A stretch of DNA of 64,000 nt from assembly GCA_016786465.1 (NCBI GenBank), contig JAEUWC010000003.1:62001-126000 (forward strand). Reading direction: 5' to 3'. Positions 2,951 through 11,138 of the stretch are shown piece after piece. The stretch comes from Bdellovibrionales bacterium. Lineage in GTDB: Bacteria; Bdellovibrionota; UBA1018. Every line of letters starts with the position of its first letter. The stretch's first letter is position 1. Both the position numbers and the translations under genes were made by a program. A model generated the notes under the pieces. That model saw only the letters and a list, made by a program, of their open reading frames with translations, searched no databases and was not told where the DNA came from.

Positions 2951-3712
2951 ATGGCTCGACCCTTTGAACTTTTACTGAACGGACTATTTCGACTTTTCGT
3001 TCGCGTCGCTTCGCGAATGGATCCGTGGGTGCGTTTTGAAATTCACGATGCCACGCGTGCTCCGCTGCGCGAAAACTTCCTAACGGATCTTGCCCAGTTC
3101 CGTGCGCGCGCCTACCAGAAAAGGCTTCCTCATCTGGCTGAAAAGTTCACCTTGCAGGCCGGCGGCACAGAAGAAAATCACGAAAGCCATTGGGACCTTC
3201 GCAGTATTCACGTGATTGCTCGTCGTCGCTACCCATTCAGCCTAAGTCCATTTCCGCGCGAAGAAAAAATCATCGCTGCTGTTCGTTTCACCCCAGCCCC
3301 TTTTGAAATGAACGACTTTATTGAATTGAACCACGACGAACAGGCGAATCTTGAAAAGGATGCCTTGGAAATCGGCCGCCTGATTTCGAATACTAGAATT
3401 CCCTTCGTGGGTCGTCGCCTTCTTTTCATCGGCGGAGAATACATCTGGTCCAACACCCGTTATCGCGCTTTAGCTGCGATCTGCCGTGCAGAAAAACTTC
3501 CACTTTTTCAAAGTTTTGGTCTGAAGCCCATCAGCGAACCGTTCTGGTTTGACGAAAGAAAAGGCAACTATACGGTGATCTGGGGCGACCTGACTTCGGT
3601 GATTTCCGCCGTGCGTGGTGCATTCAAAAAAAGGCTTCGCGAATACTTTCGCTTTAAGCCAAGACGCGCGCTGCCCGGGTATTCTGGGTCTAAGAAAGGA
3701 AAGTCCGGATGA
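2951..3712 (+). CDS. GNAT-fold acyltransferase-like protein (N-acyl amino acid / autoinducer synthase type)
   Basis: 253 residues, no signal peptide. The middle of the protein has a GNAT/autoinducer-synthase pattern: KIIAAVRFTPAPFE, then ALEIGRLISNTR (an acidic residue followed by G-R-L), and later LPLFQSFGLKPISEPFWF, resembling the closing GF.P segment. Enzymes of this type transfer fatty acyl groups from acyl-ACP or acyl-CoA to amino acids or other amines. First gene of a six-gene run: its stop overlaps the next start by 4 bp (ATGA), so translation is probably coupled. The N-terminus is basic and partly amphipathic, compatible with membrane association. The family call is from pattern only; an unrelated GNAT is possible. 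Confidence 0.5.
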   Translation: MARPFELLLNGLFRLFVRVASRMDPWVRFEIHDATRAPLRENFLTDLAQFRARAYQKRLPHLAEKFTLQAGGTEENHESHWDLRSIHVIARRRYPFSLSPFPREEKIIAAVRFTPAPFEMNDFIELNHDEQANLEKDALEIGRLISNTRIPFVGRRLLFIGGEYIWSNTRYRALAAICRAEKLPLFQSFGLKPISEPFWFDERKGNYTVIWGDLTSVISAVRGAFKKRLREYFRFKPRRALPGYSGSKKGKSG

Positions 3713-4605
3713 AGACCATGCACCGGATCCTTTTTGCAGATTCCCTTTTTTGGCTTTCAAGACCGATCTTGAAGCTCATGGACATTCGTTTTGAACGCGC
3801 CGTGGTTCGCCGAAAAGGGATTCGCTGGTGCCTGGATCTTCGTGAATCCATCGACCTTTCGCTTTTCTTTACCGGCACCTTCGAACCCGACGTTACCCTG
3901 TCTTATCAAAAGATTCTTCGACCCGGTGACCGTGTCCTGGATATCGGAGCAAACTTCGGTGCGCACACTTTGCGTTTCGCCCAAGCGGTGGGTCCGACCG
4001 GTCACGTTGTCGCCTTCGAACCCACGCGGTACGCATTGGATCGCCTTCGCCAGAATCTGGCTTTGAATCCTGAATTTTCTTCGCAGGTTGAAGTTCAGTT
4101 TTCGTTTTTGGGACGCACCCCATCTGCGGAAATTCCAAAAGCTGTCAGTTCCAGCTTTCGTTTGGCCAGCTTTTCTGAATCTGAAGAAAGAAACCCCAAA
4201 GATTTCGGCTTTGCCAAATCCACTGAAGGCGCAGCTTCAACGACGTTGGATCTTTTTACGGCCGGACTGCCCGGTCGTCCTGAAAACGCCATGGACTTCG
4301 TCAAACTGGACGTCGACGGCAATGAAACCGAAGTCATCGCCGGGGCCAGCAGCACTTTGAAGTCGTTGCGACCTGTCTTCTTGGTTGAAATCGCCCCGGG
4401 CCATTTTGAAGATCAGCCTGAACGATTTCACAGCTGGGTTTCTGGAATCCTGTCCCAAGGCTATCGGGTCTACGACTTAAAGTTTCAATCGCTGACGGCT
4501 GAAAGCATCGCCCTTTGGAAGGGGACGCCCTTGGGCGCTTATTCCAACGTCTGGATGGTGCCTGAAGAAAAAATCTGGTCATTCACTGAAAGGGCAAGGT
4601 CATGA
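3709..4605 (+). CDS. FkbM-family SAM-dependent methyltransferase
   Basis: 298 residues. The Rossmann methyltransferase core begins with RVLDIGANFGAHT (SAM-binding motif I, about residues 75-87) and VVAFEPTRYALDRL (motif II, acidic ribose-binding residue). The later FVKLDVDGNETEVIAG and FLVEI stretches are characteristic of FkbM/Methyltransf_21 proteins, which commonly O-methylate sugars, polyketides or lipids. Start and stop overlap both neighbours by 4 bp, indicating a tightly coupled operon. An N-terminal region of about 70 residues precedes the SAM domain. Substrate unknown; from context a lipid or acylated intermediate. Confidence 0.85.
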   Translation: MKTMHRILFADSLFWLSRPILKLMDIRFERAVVRRKGIRWCLDLRESIDLSLFFTGTFEPDVTLSYQKILRPGDRVLDIGANFGAHTLRFAQAVGPTGHVVAFEPTRYALDRLRQNLALNPEFSSQVEVQFSFLGRTPSAEIPKAVSSSFRLASFSESEERNPKDFGFAKSTEGAASTTLDLFTAGLPGRPENAMDFVKLDVDGNETEVIAGASSTLKSLRPVFLVEIAPGHFEDQPERFHSWVSGILSQGYRVYDLKFQSLTAESIALWKGTPLGAYSNVWMVPEEKIWSFTERARS

Positions 4606-5588
4606 AGTCCTACCCGGCTGAACACCAGATCGCTTCCCAGCTTTCGTTGAAGGAATTCAAAACAATTTCTGAAACGCAGATGCAAGGTCTTCGAGAATTC
4701 AGTTCACGCCTTCATCAGTGGCAGAAAAGGCATCCCATCTTGGATGGGTTTCTGACCTTGGCCCCGCTTTTGATTCTTTCGGGCGTTTGGGGTGTCGCGC
4801 TTTCGCTTGGCCTTCACTGGACATTGATGTCTTTGATTCACGGTTTTGTGGCCTATAGCTGGGTCGTGTATTCGCTTCATGAATGCGCGGGCCACGGTGT
4901 TCGAAACGATTCTCTTCGATACTGGATTGGCCAATCGTCGCGCCTTTGGATGGCGGATCCCGAATATTACCGCGAATTTCACCTTTCTCATCACACGAAA
5001 CTAGGCACGAATCAGGACGGAACATTCACCCACGCGGTGGGGACAGTCCGCCTTTTGAAAAGCCTATTGCCCTTTTCCGGAATTCTTTTTCCAAACGACT
5101 ACAAAGTCCACATGGGCGGGCCCAAGACGCGTTCGCAGGTCCTTTCCATGCGCGTGGGCCTGGCGTTTGTCGTCGCCCTTTCGGCGGTGGTTTGTGCGAC
5201 CTATGAAAGTGCGAATGGATTCTGGGTCACCTTGGTTTTTGGACCTTGGGTTTCATTTGTTTTGGATCGACTGCGCGAAAGCATCGAACATCAGCTGATG
5301 CCCCAGGACCGAACCTACGGCGCGCGCGAAATCGGTTGGACGTTTGCAGGACAAATCGTGGCAGGTGGTCCATGGGGTCAGCCTTTTCATTTTACCCATC
5401 ACTTGGCACCGGGTCTGCCCTGGTACCTTCAAGTGATTCTGGCAGGTAAAAGTCGCCGGGCATTGTTGCACGCAGATGCACAGCATCCAGTTTTGACCGG
5501 AAATTCGGCAAAAATGCTGCGCGATTTTGTTGAAAACCAACGCAAGATCTACCGCCAAGAAAGGATTCGAAATGCTCAGGCTTCTTGA
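4602..5588 (+). CDS. Membrane fatty-acid desaturase / hydroxylase family protein
   Basis: 328 residues with hydrophobic segments around 50-90 and 182-222. The three histidine boxes of integral-membrane di-iron desaturases are present: HECAGH (93-98), HLSHH (127-131) and HFTHH (263-267). A further conserved-looking ESIEHQ sits at 226-231. Such enzymes use O2 and electrons to desaturate or hydroxylate acyl chains or carotenoids. It overlaps the previous gene by 4 bp and the next by 17 bp. In this operon it may modify the acyl chain handled by the flanking acyltransferases. Desaturase and hydroxylase activities cannot be told apart from sequence. Confidence 0.88.
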   Translation: MKSYPAEHQIASQLSLKEFKTISETQMQGLREFSSRLHQWQKRHPILDGFLTLAPLLILSGVWGVALSLGLHWTLMSLIHGFVAYSWVVYSLHECAGHGVRNDSLRYWIGQSSRLWMADPEYYREFHLSHHTKLGTNQDGTFTHAVGTVRLLKSLLPFSGILFPNDYKVHMGGPKTRSQVLSMRVGLAFVVALSAVVCATYESANGFWVTLVFGPWVSFVLDRLRESIEHQLMPQDRTYGAREIGWTFAGQIVAGGPWGQPFHFTHHLAPGLPWYLQVILAGKSRRALLHADAQHPVLTGNSAKMLRDFVENQRKIYRQERIRNAQAS

Positions 5589-6213
5589 ATCCTTAACGGC
5601 ATTCTTTGGTGTGATTCACGTTTTTACGACCCTAGCGCTAGGCGTGGTCACGATGCGCGCGCTTGGTTCGCTTTCATTGGCGGGCCTTGTGGGGGCCGCA
5701 TGGCTTTATCTTTTTCCGCCGATTTTGTGGCGAATCGTACGCGTATTCACCGGTAATCCCGTGGGTGCATTTCGTGTTGGAAAAACGGGTAAGCCATCGG
5801 CTTGGGTCGCTTACTACAACCTTCAGTTTCTTTTTACCGTCGCGCCTTGGATTGAAAAATTCCTTCTTTTGATCCCAGGGGCCTATAGCGCGTGGCTTCG
5901 CCTTTGGGGAAGTCAGATTGGTAAGAAAGTGATCTGGACCCCAGGCGTGACGATCGTGGATCGCGGGCACCTGGAAGTTGGCGACTATGCATTTTTTGGA
6001 AACAACAGTTACCTCAGCGCGCACGTCGTATCCCGGCGCGATACCCGCTACATCCTTTACGTAAAAAAGCTTCGGGTCGGAAATCGCGCGTTTGTGGGCG
6101 CTTGGTCGATGCTTGGGCCCGGCGCCAAGGTCCAGGATCACGGTTACACCGAAATCCACAGCGCTATTTATGAAGACCGGACAGGAGTTCAAAATGAAAC
6201 CAAAGTCCACTGA
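5572..6213 (+). CDS. Left-handed beta-helix (hexapeptide) acyltransferase with membrane anchor
   Basis: 213 residues from the ATG at 5572; this start overlaps the upstream stop by 17 bp and removes an implausible extension. Two hydrophobic segments (about 8-28 and 33-55) suggest a membrane anchor. Residues about 118-205 show hexapeptide-repeat character (VIWTPGVTIVDRGHLEVGDYA, LRVGNRAFVGAWSMLGPGAKV), the left-handed beta-helix of bacterial acyl- and acetyltransferases. The repeat domain is short, so oligomers would be needed for a full active site. It probably acylates the operon product, but donor and acceptor are unknown. Confidence 0.7.
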   Translation: MLRLLESLTAFFGVIHVFTTLALGVVTMRALGSLSLAGLVGAAWLYLFPPILWRIVRVFTGNPVGAFRVGKTGKPSAWVAYYNLQFLFTVAPWIEKFLLLIPGAYSAWLRLWGSQIGKKVIWTPGVTIVDRGHLEVGDYAFFGNNSYLSAHVVSRRDTRYILYVKKLRVGNRAFVGAWSMLGPGAKVQDHGYTEIHSAIYEDRTGVQNETKVH

Positions 6214-7108
6214 GCTTTTCGAATCGCTTCGGACCCTAGGACTTCGTCACCGTTCCAGAAACTTGAAAGTGTCGAATCTTTCGCGCGTAGCGTGTGACCA
6301 ACGGATCATCAGTTTGGGTCGCGACGATCGGATGGCCGGCGAAACAAAAAAATCGCACACTTACTGGCCAGCAGAAACGTTTGGACTTCAAAGAAGCGGT
6401 TTGTACCAGTCGCTTTCGGATTCCCAAAAGGCGCGCGTCTTGGAAACGATGTCCCAACTTCGTCTATCTTTGGCTTGGTACATCGAAAAGGTGGGCTTGG
6501 CCTATTGTTCACGCGCGCTTTTGGAATGTGATTCTCACGAAGAAAAGCGCCTTTACGCGTTGATGGCGTCGGACGAAGCCGTTCACCAACGCATGGTGGA
6601 ACATTTCTTGGTCGATGGGGAACCGATCGAAGCCTTGGAAAAGCACCCGCTGCTTCTTTGCATTGCAGACGTGATTCAGAACGCGAAGCCCATGGCCGCC
6701 GTCTACGTGGTCCAGATTCTTTTGGAAGGATTTGGCATGAGCTACTATTCTGCGATGCGGTCGACCTGTGAATCGTCGCTTCTTCGCGGGGTCTTTGACC
6801 AGATTTTGAAAGACGAATCGCGCCACCACGGAGGCGGCTTGGCCCGTTTTGGCAGTAAGGATTTGGATGCCGAAGACCTGCGCGAAATCGAGCATCACAC
6901 GGGCCGTTTGATTCGCGCAATGAGCGGCGTGGGCTTTACAGGAATTGCGATCGAGACCGTCTTGAATCGTCCCCTGACACCGGAAGAAAAAGAAAAGCTT
7001 TTGGAAGAAACGGAATGGAATCGCCAGGCGCCCGTGCGTTTGGCCCAGATCCGAGAACTTTTGAGCCGGCACGAAGTGCCCGGCCTGAACCTAGCGAGGT
7101 CAGTATGA
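6194..7108 (+). CDS. Ferritin-like di-iron oxidase/oxygenase
   Basis: 304 residues from the ATG at 6194, overlapping the upstream stop by 20 bp. The four-helix di-iron signature is readable in order: Glu98 (YIEKVG), Glu128-x2-His131 (DEAVH), Glu178 (LLEGFG) and Glu208-x2-His211 (DESRHH). This E / ExxH / E / ExxH ligand set is that of ferritin-like carboxylate di-iron enzymes (soluble desaturases, AurF-like N-oxygenases, MiaE-like hydroxylases). The exact subfamily is not recognisable, and simple iron storage is unlikely given the length and operon. It is coupled by ATGA to a second, structurally different di-iron oxidase. Confidence 0.8.
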   Translation: MKPKSTELFESLRTLGLRHRSRNLKVSNLSRVACDQRIISLGRDDRMAGETKKSHTYWPAETFGLQRSGLYQSLSDSQKARVLETMSQLRLSLAWYIEKVGLAYCSRALLECDSHEEKRLYALMASDEAVHQRMVEHFLVDGEPIEALEKHPLLLCIADVIQNAKPMAAVYVVQILLEGFGMSYYSAMRSTCESSLLRGVFDQILKDESRHHGGGLARFGSKDLDAEDLREIEHHTGRLIRAMSGVGFTGIAIETVLNRPLTPEEKEKLLEETEWNRQAPVRLAQIRELLSRHEVPGLNLARSV

Positions 7109-7827
7109 GCGCACAAATGGACCGTTTGAAAAAGACATTGAAGGACTTTTTTGCTGAAAAGTCATCCACTTCAAAAATCATGGAAGCGTTCGAGCCAGGA
7201 AAGCCCTTGGATCGCCGGCTTTTCGCCATCTACTTGATCGAAACTTTTCATTACACTAGGCACAATGCCAGAAACCAGGCAGCCGTGGCCATCAACCATG
7301 TCGACTTGGATATTCGCTACATGAAGTACTGCCTAAAGCACGCGCACGAAGAAGCCGGACACGAAATGATGGCTTTTCATGATCTGAAGTCCCTGGGCTA
7401 CAAAGGAACCGTCGAAAAGCTTCCAGAACCACTGCCGCAGACACAGACCCTAATTGGGTACCTGTACCATGTTTCAAAGACGGGGAATCCTTTGGCGCGT
7501 CTAGGTTACAGCTTTTGGGCCGAACGTTCGTATCAGTACATCGAGCCCATGCTTGGAGCGATTCGCGACGAGTTTGGAATCAAAAAAGGAGGAATGACCT
7601 TTTTTGATGAACATTCCGATATCGACACCAAGCATGCCGCCGAAGTCGAAGAAGTGATCGAGCGCACTTGCAAAACCGACGAAGACTGGAAGGCCATAGA
7701 AGATTGCATGATCATGAGCCTGAAATTGACAGGCCTGATGATGAAAACCGTTTATGAAGAATTCCTGCTTCTTCAACAAGGCAAGAGCGATCGTTACGCA
7801 TTCCTAAACGAGTCCATCCAAAAATGA
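7105..7827 (+). CDS. Haem-oxygenase-like di-iron oxidase (HDO family)
   Basis: 240 residues, alpha-helical, TenA/PqqC-like fold family. The HDO ligand pattern is complete: Glu83-x2-His86 (EEAGH), Glu140 (FWAERSY), then His170-x3-Asp174-x2-His177 (HSDIDTKH). The same arrangement is used by UndA (fatty-acid decarboxylation to terminal alkenes), SznF and BesC, all O2-dependent di-iron oxidases. Its ATG overlaps the previous stop (ATGA). The C-terminus overlaps the convergent E2-like gene by 34 bp. The reaction is unknown; oxidative cleavage or decarboxylation of an acyl or amino substrate is plausible from the family. Confidence 0.85.
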   Translation: MSAQMDRLKKTLKDFFAEKSSTSKIMEAFEPGKPLDRRLFAIYLIETFHYTRHNARNQAAVAINHVDLDIRYMKYCLKHAHEEAGHEMMAFHDLKSLGYKGTVEKLPEPLPQTQTLIGYLYHVSKTGNPLARLGYSFWAERSYQYIEPMLGAIRDEFGIKKGGMTFFDEHSDIDTKHAAEVEEVIERTCKTDEDWKAIEDCMIMSLKLTGLMMKTVYEEFLLLQQGKSDRYAFLNESIQK

Positions 7828-8504
7828 ATAAAGCTTCCGACCTGAGTTCCATCCACCAGCCGGTGATCGAAAGAAAGCGAGCAGGGCAGCACCCACTGGG
7901 CACGCACTTGTCCGTCGACGACCATGGGCTTTTGAATCTTGGTTCCTACCACGATTTGGACCGACCAGGGCGTGTAGCGGTTCGGGGCCGGAATCCGGGG
8001 TGGACCCCCGTGAGCTCCCGCATTGCTGATCGAAAACGTGCCGAAGGCATCGGACCTGGCCAGTCCCCAGGCACGCATCCACAACCAGATGTTCATGCTG
8101 AAGCGAAGCAAAAAGCCCGGCATCCAAAGTACCAAACCGCCAATTTTTTTCTTCAAGGGCGAAACAGTGGTCTTCGCCGTTTCCGCTTTCTTCCGAATTT
8201 CTTGATCAATTTCCTGAACCGTTTTCTGATCGGCGTTTCGAATCCAAACCCCCCAAAGCTCAGAAGCTCCCGTATGAACTTGCAAGAAGGCATCCGACTG
8301 GGACAGGCGCACGATTTTCGATCCGTGCACCCAGGCCTTCAGCTGCGGAAAGGCTTCCAGGGTTTTCGCCGTCGCCCGACAAAGGCGGGCAGTCAGCTGC
8401 CGGTCAGTTTCCAAAATGGGAAGGTCAACAAAGGTGTGCACCCGGGAAGTTTCGATGCTTCGCCAGGTTTGCAAGGCCAGTTTTCGCCAGATGTCTTTCG
8501 CCAT
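7794..8504 (-). CDS. Stand-alone E2-type CoA-dependent acyltransferase catalytic domain
   Basis: 236 residues from the ATG at 8504. Longer in-frame starts would run into the divergent glycosyltransferase. The C-terminal part matches the 2-oxoacid dehydrogenase acyltransferase / chloramphenicol acetyltransferase fold: FGTFSISNAGAHGG and the active-site SFDHRLVDG with His214. No lipoyl or peripheral-subunit-binding domain is present and no E1 or E3 gene is nearby, so this is not a normal dehydrogenase E2. A hydrophobic stretch around 120-145 (GLVLWMPGFLLRF) may be membrane-associated. It sits inside the biosynthetic locus in opposite orientation and may transfer an acyl group to or from CoA in that pathway. 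Confidence 0.75.
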   Translation of the reverse strand: MAKDIWRKLALQTWRSIETSRVHTFVDLPILETDRQLTARLCRATAKTLEAFPQLKAWVHGSKIVRLSQSDAFLQVHTGASELWGVWIRNADQKTVQEIDQEIRKKAETAKTTVSPLKKKIGGLVLWMPGFLLRFSMNIWLWMRAWGLARSDAFGTFSISNAGAHGGPPRIPAPNRYTPWSVQIVVGTKIQKPMVVDGQVRAQWVLPCSLSFDHRLVDGTQVGSFIHFWMDSFRNA

Positions 8505-8536: not shown

Positions 8537-9766
8537 ATGAAAAAGGTTCTGATCCTGACCCTACCGGTTCCTGGACACATGAATCCAGGGATTCGAATCG
8601 CTGACCAGCTTGCAAGGCTGGGTCACCAAGTCTTTTTTGCAAGTCTACGGGATACGCTGCCATTTATCAAACGATCGGGTGTTTCGGTGTCGCCATTGGT
8701 TTTTGGTGAACGCACTTTTCCGAAAGGTGCGCTTGCGGCTCGCCATTCGGGTTCAACCAAGAAAGGGGGCGCAAAAGCTTTTTTTTCTTCGGTTCAATTC
8801 ATGCGCAGCTTCAATGATGAAATTCTGTCAGATCTTCTGTCCCAATCGCGCGACTTGAAAATCGATTTGTTGGTTGCCGACGAACTGGTCGTTACGGCGG
8901 CCCGTTTCGCGGAACTTCTTGGGGTTTCGCATTGCAGTTTTGCTGCGGCCCTAAGCGTTCTTCCGGATCGTCGTGGAATCTGCCCGCCTCCAAGTTCGAA
9001 AAGTCTTCCTAGCCGAAGTTTGACTGCACGAATTCGCAACCGCGTTTCGGCTAAGGCCTTGGATTTTTGGGCAAGCACGACGTCCAAGTCGGTAGCCGAA
9101 TCGATCGATTCCGGATTTTCAAAGAAACTGCACTTAAGCCTTTGTCCGCAGGCTTTTGATTTTGATCGTGGATCGCTTCCGAAAAATTACGTCTATGTCA
9201 GCCCGCCGCATTCCGTTCAAGGGGCAGCCCAGGTTTCGGGGAACCGAAGTATGCGTCCGGTCCTTTATGCGGCTTTTGGAACCTTGATTCATTTTCAAGA
9301 ACGTCGTCGTGTCTTGGCGTTGATTTCTCAATTAGGGGCGCAGCTGGGGTTTGAAGTACACGTAGGACTTGGATCTTGGGCAGCAGAAGGTCAGGCGCAA
9401 GATTTTTCCGACTTTCATCCCGACGCGAAAGTTTACGAAATGGCACCGCAGCTGGAACTGATTCAGAAGGCAGACTGGGTGGTCACCCACGGCGGAATGA
9501 ATACGGTGATGGAAGCCTTATCGATGGGGAAGCCGGTTTTGGTACTTCCGTACAATCAAGATCAGTTTGGAATCGCAGCGCGCGTTCGGCACCACGGATT
9601 GGGAAAAAGCTTGGATTTCAAAGATGCCGATGCACAAAGGTTAAGTCGCATCCTTTCAGAACTGGCATCAGATGGTCGGTACAAAGAACGTGCCTTCAAT
9701 TTTCAGAAAAACTTTCAAAACATTCGCCAAGCAGGAGACCTGATCCATGAACGCTTCCTGGCTTAG
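8537..9766 (+). CDS. GT1-family (MGT/UGT-like) glycosyltransferase
   Basis: 409 residues, GT-B fold. The N-terminus MKKVLILTLPVPGHMNP with a GH motif is typical of UGT/MGT enzymes. The C-terminal nucleotide-sugar region includes VYEMAPQLELIQKAD (from residue 299), THGGMNTVMEAL (HGG at about 318) and PVLVLPYNQDQFGIA. These enzymes glycosylate lipids, carotenoids, macrolides and other hydrophobic acceptors. It is divergent from the E2-like gene with only 32 bp between them and overlaps the downstream hydrolase by 20 bp. In context it is the probable glycosylation step for the product of 2951-7827. Confidence 0.88.
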   Translation: MKKVLILTLPVPGHMNPGIRIADQLARLGHQVFFASLRDTLPFIKRSGVSVSPLVFGERTFPKGALAARHSGSTKKGGAKAFFSSVQFMRSFNDEILSDLLSQSRDLKIDLLVADELVVTAARFAELLGVSHCSFAAALSVLPDRRGICPPPSSKSLPSRSLTARIRNRVSAKALDFWASTTSKSVAESIDSGFSKKLHLSLCPQAFDFDRGSLPKNYVYVSPPHSVQGAAQVSGNRSMRPVLYAAFGTLIHFQERRRVLALISQLGAQLGFEVHVGLGSWAAEGQAQDFSDFHPDAKVYEMAPQLELIQKADWVVTHGGMNTVMEALSMGKPVLVLPYNQDQFGIAARVRHHGLGKSLDFKDADAQRLSRILSELASDGRYKERAFNFQKNFQNIRQAGDLIHERFLA

Positions 9767-11138
9767 CCTTTTGGCCCTTTTTCTTTTGATTTCGTCCCAA
9801 GCCCAGGCGGGTCAGGGATTTCGAAAATGCATTCCTTTAGAAAGCGATCGAAATCTTTTCTTGATCTGGAATGAATCGGATCTTTACGCCCGCGAAATTA
9901 AGTATCGGATTTCAGGTCACCCTTGTTCCAATTACAGCAGGGTCGTGAATCGAAGGGGTCTTTTCAAGACGCTGAAGCCGGACCAGACCGATATCCATCT
10001 TTCAAAAAGAACGTTGGCCGAACTAGATCAGGTTCGTCGGGGTGCAACTGAACCTTTGGACCCGGAAATGACGGCTTTCCAGTTCATTCGCAAAAACCCC
10101 ATTTACAACTTCACCGTCGAATCCAACCAAGTCCTGACTGCAAAGTACGGGCATGGTTTTTCGCAGGATGTTTACCGAGAATGGGTCCGAATTCAGGGTC
10201 CAAACGCCATCGTACAGGATCAGCTTTTTTCGCGCTTCCAGCAAATGCAGGGGATGTCCCGTGAACAACGGAATCAACACCTTCGTCAGGCAAATCCCAC
10301 AAACGCAGTTTTGCTGGTGGCATTGGGTCTAAATTGGGAAGAAGAACCCAATGAAGATTCGCGTGACTACGTGGTTGCGTTTTTTGACCTGGTTCGAAGT
10401 CTAGGCATTGACGTTAAGATCCTTCACCGTGAACGCTACGGGACGTTAGAAGTGAATCACGATCTTTTGGTTCCGCAGATTCGCGACGTCCTTTCGCAGG
10501 GGCGCGACGTGATTCTTTACGGCTTGTCCAAGGGCGCACCTGAAATCTTATCTGCGGCTTCTGAAGTCGTGGGTCCGTACTTGGATTCGAATCGCCATCA
10601 AACCCGGCTTCCGATGGGGTGGGGCCGGGTGTCAGGAGCATTCTTGGGGTCACCCATGATCGGCGGCGCTTTCGTTGCGCGCGCTTTTGGAAAGCGGGAA
10701 AGACCCGGATTTCGCAATTTCTTTTCCTTCATCGGTTTTGATGATGTCGCGGGAACGTTGAACGTCCTGCCTTCGATGTCACCCAAGTCGATGGACCGGT
10801 GGATGGCGCCGGTTTATGAAAAGCTACCCGACGATGTCAGGTACCTGACCGCAAGCGGCGTGATCGGTGGAAACGGGTTGCTGGTTGACGATACGACTGG
10901 GATGAATGCGTTCATTTCGATGAACCGCAAGTACCGGTTTTCTAAAGCTGCAAATGACGGCTTTATTGAATTTCCAGGAACACAGCTTCCCGTTAAGAAA
11001 TTTACCGATTCGCCCCTGGTATTGATTCAGGCTAGCCACATGATCCTGGATGGTTATTGGAACGGGGTTTCTCTTCGCGATACCGAAACCCGTCACGCCG
11101 CCTTCACGACTTTTCTGTCAGCGATTTTTCGGCGGTGA
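9747..11138 (+). CDS. Exported alpha/beta-hydrolase-like protein
   Basis: 463 residues with a signal peptide (MNASWLSLLALFLLISSQAQA). The centre resembles an alpha/beta hydrolase: AVLLVALGLNW, then VILYGLSKGAPEIL with a GxSxG nucleophile elbow (Gly259-Leu-Ser261-Lys-Gly263). His and Asp partners cannot be assigned with certainty; ASHMILDGYW near the end is a candidate His. The start is backed by AGGAGA and overlaps the glycosyltransferase end by 20 bp, so the two are co-transcribed. It could process or cleave an ester of the exported product. The stop abuts the convergent aldolase exactly. Confidence 0.65.
   Translation: MNASWLSLLALFLLISSQAQAGQGFRKCIPLESDRNLFLIWNESDLYAREIKYRISGHPCSNYSRVVNRRGLFKTLKPDQTDIHLSKRTLAELDQVRRGATEPLDPEMTAFQFIRKNPIYNFTVESNQVLTAKYGHGFSQDVYREWVRIQGPNAIVQDQLFSRFQQMQGMSREQRNQHLRQANPTNAVLLVALGLNWEEEPNEDSRDYVVAFFDLVRSLGIDVKILHRERYGTLEVNHDLLVPQIRDVLSQGRDVILYGLSKGAPEILSAASEVVGPYLDSNRHQTRLPMGWGRVSGAFLGSPMIGGAFVARAFGKRERPGFRNFFSFIGFDDVAGTLNVLPSMSPKSMDRWMAPVYEKLPDDVRYLTASGVIGGNGLLVDDTTGMNAFISMNRKYRFSKAANDGFIEFPGTQLPVKKFTDSPLVLIQASHMILDGYWNGVSLRDTETRHAAFTTFLSAIFRR

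What the first reader, a model, noticed from the sequence alone, without database searches (positions are those of the whole stretch)
2951..7827. Six-gene coupled operon with three different di-iron oxidase types and two acyltransferases
Seen: all five junctions overlap by 4-20 bp, so the genes are translationally coupled. Motifs identify a GNAT/autoinducer-synthase-like protein, an FkbM methyltransferase, a His-box membrane desaturase, a hexapeptide acyltransferase, a ferritin-like di-iron enzyme (E/ExxH/E/ExxH) and a haem-oxygenase-like di-iron oxidase (HxxxDxxH). Known: each family modifies lipids, amines or natural products. Inference: the set makes an oxidised, desaturated, methylated, acyl-derived molecule. 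I recognise no described cluster with this combination.
Basis: partly seen in the sequence, partly recalled or inferred. Interest (0 to 1): 0.88.

Follow-up and report, generated by a model that had tools for sequence, protein, structure and literature searches.

The report
Predator-bacteria oxidised fatty-amide gene cluster
Six tightly packed genes, plus two just downstream, form a real and evolutionarily conserved but undescribed cluster in bacteria of the Bdellovibrio phylum; it most likely makes a fatty-acid amide that three different iron oxidases, a methylase and several acyl- or sugar-adding enzymes then decorate.

Summary
In detail: six + strand genes at 2951-7827 with all five junctions overlapping (4, 4, 17, 20, 4 bp). 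Families: FeeM/LuxI-like N-acyltransferase, FkbM methyltransferase, three-His-box membrane desaturase, membrane-anchored hexapeptide acyltransferase, an unnamed ferritin-like di-iron protein (E98, E128xxH131, E178, E208xxH211) and a haem-oxygenase-like di-iron oxidase (HDO). The genes are not scattered: 15 other Bdellovibrionota loci carry orthologues in shuffled order, three hold all six, and two fuse FkbM to the HDO. Two wider patterns appeared. The N-acyltransferase/HDO pair is linked in 63 of 82 HDO loci across six phyla, usually separated by tens of bases. The hexapeptide/ferritin pair recurs in two other cluster types, one with a GH3-type ligase in place of the N-acyltransferase. Best reading: a specialised pathway that makes an N-acyl amino acid (or amine), oxidises it with up to three di-iron enzymes, then methylates, O-acylates or glycosylates it. 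The pathway class is well supported; product and reaction order are inferred. No described cluster of this content was found in ten open-access full-text searches.

The parts
2951..3712 (+). Gene 1: FeeM/LuxI-like GNAT N-acyltransferase (253 aa), predicted to form the N-acyl amide
   Evidence: Family alignment keeps R112, F118/E119 and E140xxR143, which line up with TofI RLLP and ELSR; Pfam FeeM in 9 of 20 family members; fold matches to RpaI, TofI, BjaI, LasI, EsaI and FeeM at E 1e-7 to 3e-5
3709..4605 (+). Gene 2: FkbM-family methyltransferase (298 aa)
   Evidence: PF05050 1.4e-18, TIGR01444 1.4e-21; orthologue fused N-terminally to the HDO in L009 and L010
4602..5588 (+). Gene 3: integral-membrane fatty-acid desaturase/hydroxylase superfamily (328 aa)
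   Evidence: PF00487 6.7e-10; invariant H93/E94, H127xxHH131, H263xxHH267
5572..6213 (+). Gene 4: membrane-anchored hexapeptide (left-handed beta-helix) acyltransferase (213 aa)
   Evidence: NCBIfam TIGR02353 and WcaF-type models match 21 of 22 orthologues; invariant H151 aligns with the galactoside acetyltransferase His; hydrophobic N-terminal segment
6194..7108 (+). Gene 5: ferritin-like di-iron protein of an unnamed family (304 aa)
   Evidence: E98, E128xxH131, E178, E208xxH211 invariant in 30 homologues; AlphaFold model pLDDT 87.6; structural neighbours R2lox, aldehyde-deformylating oxygenase, CmlI, AurF
7105..7827 (+). Gene 6: haem-oxygenase-like di-iron oxidase, HDO (240 aa)
   Evidence: PF14518 5.8e-19; invariant E84xxH87, E141, H171xxxD175xxH178, the 3H/3C set (residue numbers count from position 7102, one residue before the ATG); PDB 3DDE at 7.6e-86
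7797..8504 (-).
   Evidence: PF00198 3.5e-19; orthologue in the L012 cluster (7e-12); related protein in L172 (5e-6)
8537..9766 (+).
   Evidence: TIGR01426 3e-34; homologues inside the L012 and L173 clusters (7e-38, 1e-40)

Best explanation
A patchily distributed biosynthetic gene cluster of Bdellovibrionota that makes a decorated N-acyl amino acid or N-acyl amine (aminolipid-like) metabolite. Step 1 (inferred from family): gene 1 transfers an acyl group from ACP or CoA to the amine of an amino acid, as FeeM and LuxI do. Step 2 (inferred from linkage): the HDO, gene 6, oxidises that N-acylated product or its amine precursor, and FkbM methylates a group the HDO exposes. Step 3 (inferred): the membrane desaturase and the ferritin-like protein oxidise the acyl chain or head group. 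Step 4 (inferred): hexapeptide and CAT-fold acyltransferases O-acylate, and the GT glycosylates. In some relatives an RND/MMPL protein and periplasmic partners are encoded alongside, presumably for export. Shown here: gene content, family assignments, conserved catalytic positions, conserved linkage. Not shown: substrates, order, product.
For: Conserved clustering with shuffled order, which implies selection for linkage. Of 16 HDO-bearing Bdellovibrionota loci, window included: GNAT in 14 (the two without are contig fragments ending near the HDO), hexapeptide 14, ferritin 12, desaturase 9, FkbM 5; all six in the window, L009, L010 and L162. FkbM-HDO fusion in L009 and L010. A FeeM-like GNAT lies within 2 kb of the HDO in 63 of 82 loci across Bdellovibrionota, Pseudomonadota, Myxococcota, Bacteroidota, Actinomycetota and Planctomycetota, usually same strand and mostly under 100 bp away, against one hit further off in about 1,076 kb of flank. 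The hexapeptide/ferritin pair persists where the amide-forming step looks replaced by a GH3-type ligase (PF23571, PF03321). Profile and fold place gene 1 with AHL synthases and FeeM. An RND/MMPL gene sits in L008, L045 and L047. Characterised HDOs act on amino or fatty acids (PMC13108848).
Against: No substrate or product evidence. Gene 1 in the window hits no family alone. GNATs are versatile and could acetylate a protein or sugar. FkbM, WcaF-like hexapeptide and GT families are also common in polysaccharide loci. No dedicated ACP, NRPS or PKS lies in the cluster. GT and CAT genes recur in only 3 and 2 of 16 loci, so their membership is weaker; the CAT gene is on the opposite strand.
Confidence: 0.6

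Rival explanations
1. Structural membrane aminolipid pathway: gene 1 plays OlsB, the hexapeptide or CAT enzyme replaces OlsA as O-acyltransferase, and the oxidases hydroxylate the lipid as OlsE/OlsC do. The product is a bulk membrane lipid rather than a secreted metabolite.
For: The aminolipid review describes the same two-step logic and groups OlsB with FeeM and AHL synthases (PMC11631085). A distant HDO locus (L050) carries GNAT-like, PlsC-like, TylF-like and Asp/Asn-hydroxylase genes. The window's genome has a second lipid-modifying locus next to an RND homologue of the cluster's partner (L184).
Against: Patchy distribution: the ferritin profile is in 53 of 369 phylum genomes and 4 of about 35 sampled in the window's family, unlike a core membrane lipid. 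FkbM and GT genes are unusual for such lipids. Gene 1 is closer to FeeM/TofI than to the OlsB Pfam family (PF13444 in only 2 of 20 members).
Confidence: 0.17
2. N-oxygenation pathway: HDO and ferritin-like protein together oxidise an amino group (oxime, nitro, nitrile or N-N product, in the SznF/AurF style), later N-acylated.
For: Several characterised HDOs are N-oxygenases (PMC13108848). CmlI and AurF are among the structural neighbours of gene 5 with the highest TM-scores (0.59, 0.55).
Against: Gene 5 has a 4E/2H set; the position four residues before E208 is I204, so the third His of the AurF/CmlI 3H/4C set is missing (AurF numbering from memory). The HDO profile shows no significant match to SznF; its best characterised hit is the desaturase/acetylenase MboA (0.0012), then BesC (0.024). 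No NRPS as in diazeniumdiolate clusters.
Confidence: 0.1
3. Surface polysaccharide or glycolipid modification locus: FkbM, WcaF-like acetyltransferase and GT modify a sugar, the oxidases being accessory.
For: Gene 4 matches WcaF and galactoside/maltose acetyltransferases; gene 8 is a GT; FkbM proteins methylate sugars (general knowledge).
Against: The GT is absent from most orthologous loci while the GNAT/HDO and hexapeptide/ferritin pairs persist. No sugar-nucleotide, Wzx or Wzy genes were recognised beside it. Three di-iron enzymes have no precedent there that I know of.
Confidence: 0.08
4. AHL-type quorum signal: gene 1 is an AHL synthase and the rest tailors the signal.
For: Fold and motif similarity to TofI, LasI and EsaI.
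Against: Similar also to FeeM, which does not use SAM; no LuxR-type receptor was recognised next to it; Pfam's autoinducer synthase family was not among the hits of any of 20 members while FeeM was hit by 9.
Confidence: 0.05

Closest known systems
FeeM / N-acyl amino acid synthase clusters (soil eDNA)
   Same: FeeM-like N-acyltransferase as the presumed first step; small cluster without PKS or NRPS
   Different: The window adds three di-iron oxidases, FkbM, hexapeptide and CAT acyltransferases; sequence similarity to FeeM is weak (about 10% identity in the structural match)
Ornithine-lipid type aminolipid pathways (OlsB/OlsA plus OlsE/OlsC)
   Same: N-acylation, then O-acylation, then oxygenase tailoring
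   Different: No OlsA/PlsC in the window cluster; O-acyltransferases of other folds; HDO, ferritin-like and FkbM enzymes are not part of ols systems
Characterised HDOs (MboA, BesC, UndA, SznF, PolF)
   Same: Haem-oxygenase fold with 3H/3C ligand set; genetic link to amino-acid or fatty-acid tailoring
   Different: The window HDO belongs to an uncharacterised subfamily whose only close structure is 3DDE, a structural-genomics entry without assigned function; linked to a FeeM-like GNAT, unlike MboA's ATP-grasp ligases
AurF/CmlI and ADO/R2lox ferritin-like oxygenases
   Same: Helical di-iron core, E...ExxH...E...ExxH
   Different: No strong sequence match (best PDB profile E 3e-4, short helical match); best fold match E 5e-3; lacks AurF's third His

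Membership tests
FeeM/LuxI-type N-acyltransferase (gene 1) | GNAT fold of the FeeM/AHL-synthase type | tested here: met
   Model pLDDT 82.5; matches to RpaI, TofI, MesI, BjaI, LasI, EsaI and FeeM at E 1e-7 to 3e-5; profile hit to TofI 1.4e-6
FeeM/LuxI-type N-acyltransferase (gene 1) | Conserved Arg and ExxR signature | tested here: met
   R112 and E140xxR143 align with TofI R(LLP) and E(LS)R
FeeM/LuxI-type N-acyltransferase (gene 1) | Uses acyl-ACP/CoA and an amino acid or amine | not testable with these tools
   Needs biochemistry
LuxI AHL synthase | SAM binding and Pfam autoinducer synthase match | tested here: inconclusive
   No family member hits the LuxI Pfam at E 0.1 while 9 of 20 hit FeeM; SAM binding not testable
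HDO superfamily (gene 6) | Haem-oxygenase-like domain | tested here: met
   PF14518 5.8e-19, 3DDE 7.6e-86
HDO superfamily (gene 6) | 3His/3carboxylate ligand set | tested here: met
   E84, H87, E141, H171, D175, H178 invariant in 12 homologues
AurF/CmlI N-oxygenases (gene 5) | 3His/4carboxylate ligands, Pfam AurF above cutoff | tested here: not met
   AurF score 13.4 against cutoff 29.6; I204 instead of the third His (AurF numbering from memory)
Ferritin-like di-iron superfamily (gene 5) | E...ExxH...E...ExxH on a helical bundle | tested here: met
   Invariant in 30 sequences; helical model pLDDT 87.6; R2lox/ADO/CmlI as nearest folds although E is only 5e-3
FkbM methyltransferase (gene 2) | PF05050 / TIGR01444 above cutoff | tested here: met
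   68.1 bits against 22.7, 77.4 against 37.7
Membrane fatty-acid desaturase (gene 3) | PF00487 above cutoff, three His boxes | tested here: met
   39.6 bits against 29.7; invariant boxes
Hexapeptide acyltransferase (gene 4) | Left-handed beta-helix repeats and catalytic His | tested here: met
   Family profile hits maltose/galactoside O-acetyltransferases 7.6e-9; invariant H151 aligns with their His; the Pfam Hexapep cutoff alone is not met (21.6 against 27)
Ornithine-lipid (ols) pathway | OlsA/PlsC O-acyltransferase beside OlsB (PF13444) | tested here: not met
   No PlsC in the cluster; PF13444 in only 2 of 20 gene-1 relatives

The most novel reading that the evidence does not exclude
The cluster defines a new natural-product class: an N-acyl amide built by a FeeM/LuxI-like enzyme and processed by an HDO subfamily dedicated to N-acyl amides, with an unnamed ferritin-like oxygenase working together with a membrane acyltransferase. 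The GNAT-HDO pair would be a general, so far undescribed two-enzyme module spread over six bacterial phyla.
Probability: 0.4. Interest if true: 0.75.

Novelty: new variant of a known kind. Interest (0 to 1): 0.58.

Why it matters
Only about a dozen HDOs have known reactions (PMC13108848). The linkage found here names a concrete substrate hypothesis, N-acyl amides made by the neighbouring enzyme, for a large uncharacterised HDO subfamily present in culturable Pseudomonas, Corallococcus, Vibrio and Flavobacterium. It also points to a small-molecule product family in Bdellovibrionota, and to an unnamed ferritin-like family recurring in three types of oxidative cluster.

Tried and rejected
(1) Filing gene 5 with AurF: rejected on Pfam cutoff and missing third His. 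(2) Filing the HDO with UndA, SznF or CADD: no profile hit among characterised HDOs better than MboA at 0.0012. (3) genome-contig scan with gene 5 alone: no relatives; replaced by whole-genome profile searches. (4) Gene 9 (9747-11138, hypothetical) as a cluster member: it overlaps gene 8 by 20 bp, but no homologue was found in the fetched related loci, so it was left out. (5) Promoter and terminator scan: counts near the shuffled expectation, uninformative. (6) Gene 5 profile in 15 genomes with related HDOs from other phyla: only two weak hits around 1e-9, so the window-type cluster looks confined to Bdellovibrionota. Four Myxococcota genomes of 193 have strong gene-5 orthologues; in L191, L193 and L194 they lie in the Rieske-type cluster; the L192 context was not resolved. 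(7) Chance neighbourhood: rejected, since order and orientation vary while content persists.
Full report
Observation. The window lies in a Bdellovibrionota genome (3.63 Mb, 30 contigs, 97% complete; G000; the phylum is inferred from named relatives of the same family and order). Six + strand genes run from 2951 to 7827. Overlaps are 4, 4, 17, 20 and 4 bp; the last is an ATGA at 7105-7108. GC content is that of the surroundings, so there is no sign of very recent import.

Families. Gene 1 hits no family alone, but 9 of 20 relatives match Pfam FeeM, its profile matches the AHL synthase TofI (1.4e-6), and its model (pLDDT 82.5) matches RpaI, TofI, MesI, BjaI, LasI, EsaI and FeeM. R112 and E140xxR143 align with the TofI Arg and ExxR. 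Gene 2 is FkbM. Gene 3 is a membrane desaturase/hydroxylase with three His boxes. Gene 4 is a hexapeptide acyltransferase with a hydrophobic N-terminus; its invariant H151 aligns with the galactoside acetyltransferase His. Gene 5 is ferritin-like with an invariant E98, E128xxH131, E178, E208xxH211 set; its model (pLDDT 87.6) resembles R2lox, aldehyde-deformylating oxygenase, CmlI and AurF only weakly. Gene 6 is an HDO with an invariant 3H/3C set; its only close structure is 3DDE, of unknown function, and MboA is the nearest characterised one (0.0012).

Boundaries. Immediately downstream lie a CAT-fold (E2-like) acyltransferase on the other strand, which keeps its DHRLVDG motif, and a GT1 glycosyltransferase. 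Both have relatives in the L012 cluster, and the GT also in L173, so they probably belong. Gene 9 (9747-11138) has no such support.

Conservation. Sixteen Bdellovibrionota loci, window included, have an HDO of this clade linked to other members: GNAT in 14, hexapeptide 14, ferritin 12, desaturase 9, FkbM 5, GT 3, E2 2, a propeller protein 5, RND plus periplasmic partner 3. All six genes are together in the window, L009, L010 and L162. Order and orientation differ between loci. In L009 and L010 the FkbM and HDO form one 544-residue frame. In the HDO tree the Bdellovibrionota loci fall in or next to one group, although with modest support.

Wider pattern 1. Scanning species genomes with the HDO profile and asking what lies nearby gave a FeeM-like GNAT within 2 kb in 63 of 82 loci, usually directly upstream on the same strand, in Bdellovibrionota, Pseudomonadota, Myxococcota, Bacteroidota, Actinomycetota and Planctomycetota. 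Only one GNAT hit lay further away in about 1,076 kb of flank, and that one is inside the L090 cluster. In many Pseudomonas, Corallococcus and Flavobacterium loci a DUF3419 gene is nearby, directly downstream in those inspected (PF11899, 4.4e-28 in L060). In a Vibrio the next gene is a 2Fe-2S ferredoxin and in a Pseudomonas an FMN reductase, consistent with a need for electrons.

Wider pattern 2. The hexapeptide/ferritin pair (genes 4 and 5) recurs in two other cluster types: with the GNAT, Coq4 and a PEMT/ICMT-like membrane methyltransferase (L165, L167-L169), and, with the two genes sometimes several genes apart, with Rieske proteins, a ferredoxin, a sterol-desaturase-superfamily protein, a GH3-type ligase and a second ferritin-like protein (L170-L180, not every gene in each). 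In the last type a GH3 ligase, whose family makes amides, stands where the other clusters have the FeeM-like enzyme. That type also occurs in a few Myxococcota. This supports an N-acyl amide as the common scaffold, but it is inference.

Mechanism. Shown: gene content, conserved catalytic positions, conserved linkage, fusion. Inferred: amide formation by gene 1; oxidation of that product by the HDO (paired with it across phyla) and methylation by FkbM (fused to the HDO); further oxidation by genes 3 and 5; O-acylation by genes 4 and 7; glycosylation by gene 8; export by the RND protein in relatives. In the window's own genome the RND homologue sits elsewhere, beside two desaturases, a fatty-acid hydroxylase and a sulfotransferase (L184).

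Known or not. The two-step N- then O-acylation logic is that of aminolipids (PMC11631085), and the HDO and ferritin chemistry is known in kind (PMC13108848, PMC13185094). None of ten open-access searches showed a cluster with this content or described the GNAT-HDO pairing; MIBiG and subscription journals were out of reach. Verdict: real, conserved, ordinary in its parts, unusual in its combination; a new variant of N-acyl amide/aminolipid-type biosynthetic clusters.

Noticed in passing
L184:8700-17122 (G000:C1:13700-22122, same genome as the window): Second lipid-type locus: RND/MMPL homologue convergently overlapping a periplasmic partner, then FA_desaturase, FA_hydroxylase, FA_desaturase and a sulfotransferase.
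   Followed up: partly
L009:1192-2826 and L010:6269-7903: FkbM methyltransferase fused to the haem-oxygenase-like oxidase in one 544-residue frame, in two related MAGs.
   Followed up: partly
L060:9365-10462, L065:10763-11857, L061:10723-11820: DUF3419 (BtaA-like aminocarboxypropyl transferase family) directly downstream of the GNAT-HDO pair in Zooshikella, Pseudomonas and Corallococcus; also near it in Flavobacterium.
   Followed up: partly
L170-L180, L191, L193, L194: Large oxidative cluster in Bacteriovoracia-type genomes and a few Myxococcota: Rieske proteins, ferredoxin, sterol-desaturase-type protein, two ferritin-like proteins, SDR, hexapeptide, with a GH3-type ligase in several of the L170-L180 loci.
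   Followed up: partly
L165:7903-11523 (similar in L167-L169): Ferritin-like, hexapeptide and FeeM-like GNAT genes next to a Coq4 homologue and a PEMT/ICMT-like membrane methyltransferase.
   Followed up: partly
L050:1861-5517: Distant HDO next to GNAT-like, PlsC-like acyltransferase, TylF-like methyltransferase and Asp/Asn beta-hydroxylase genes, reminiscent of ornithine-lipid logic.
   Followed up: no
window 9747-11138: Hypothetical protein (463 aa, signal-peptide-like N-terminus) overlapping the glycosyltransferase gene by 20 bp, no Pfam or NCBIfam match, no homologue in the fetched related clusters.
   Followed up: partly
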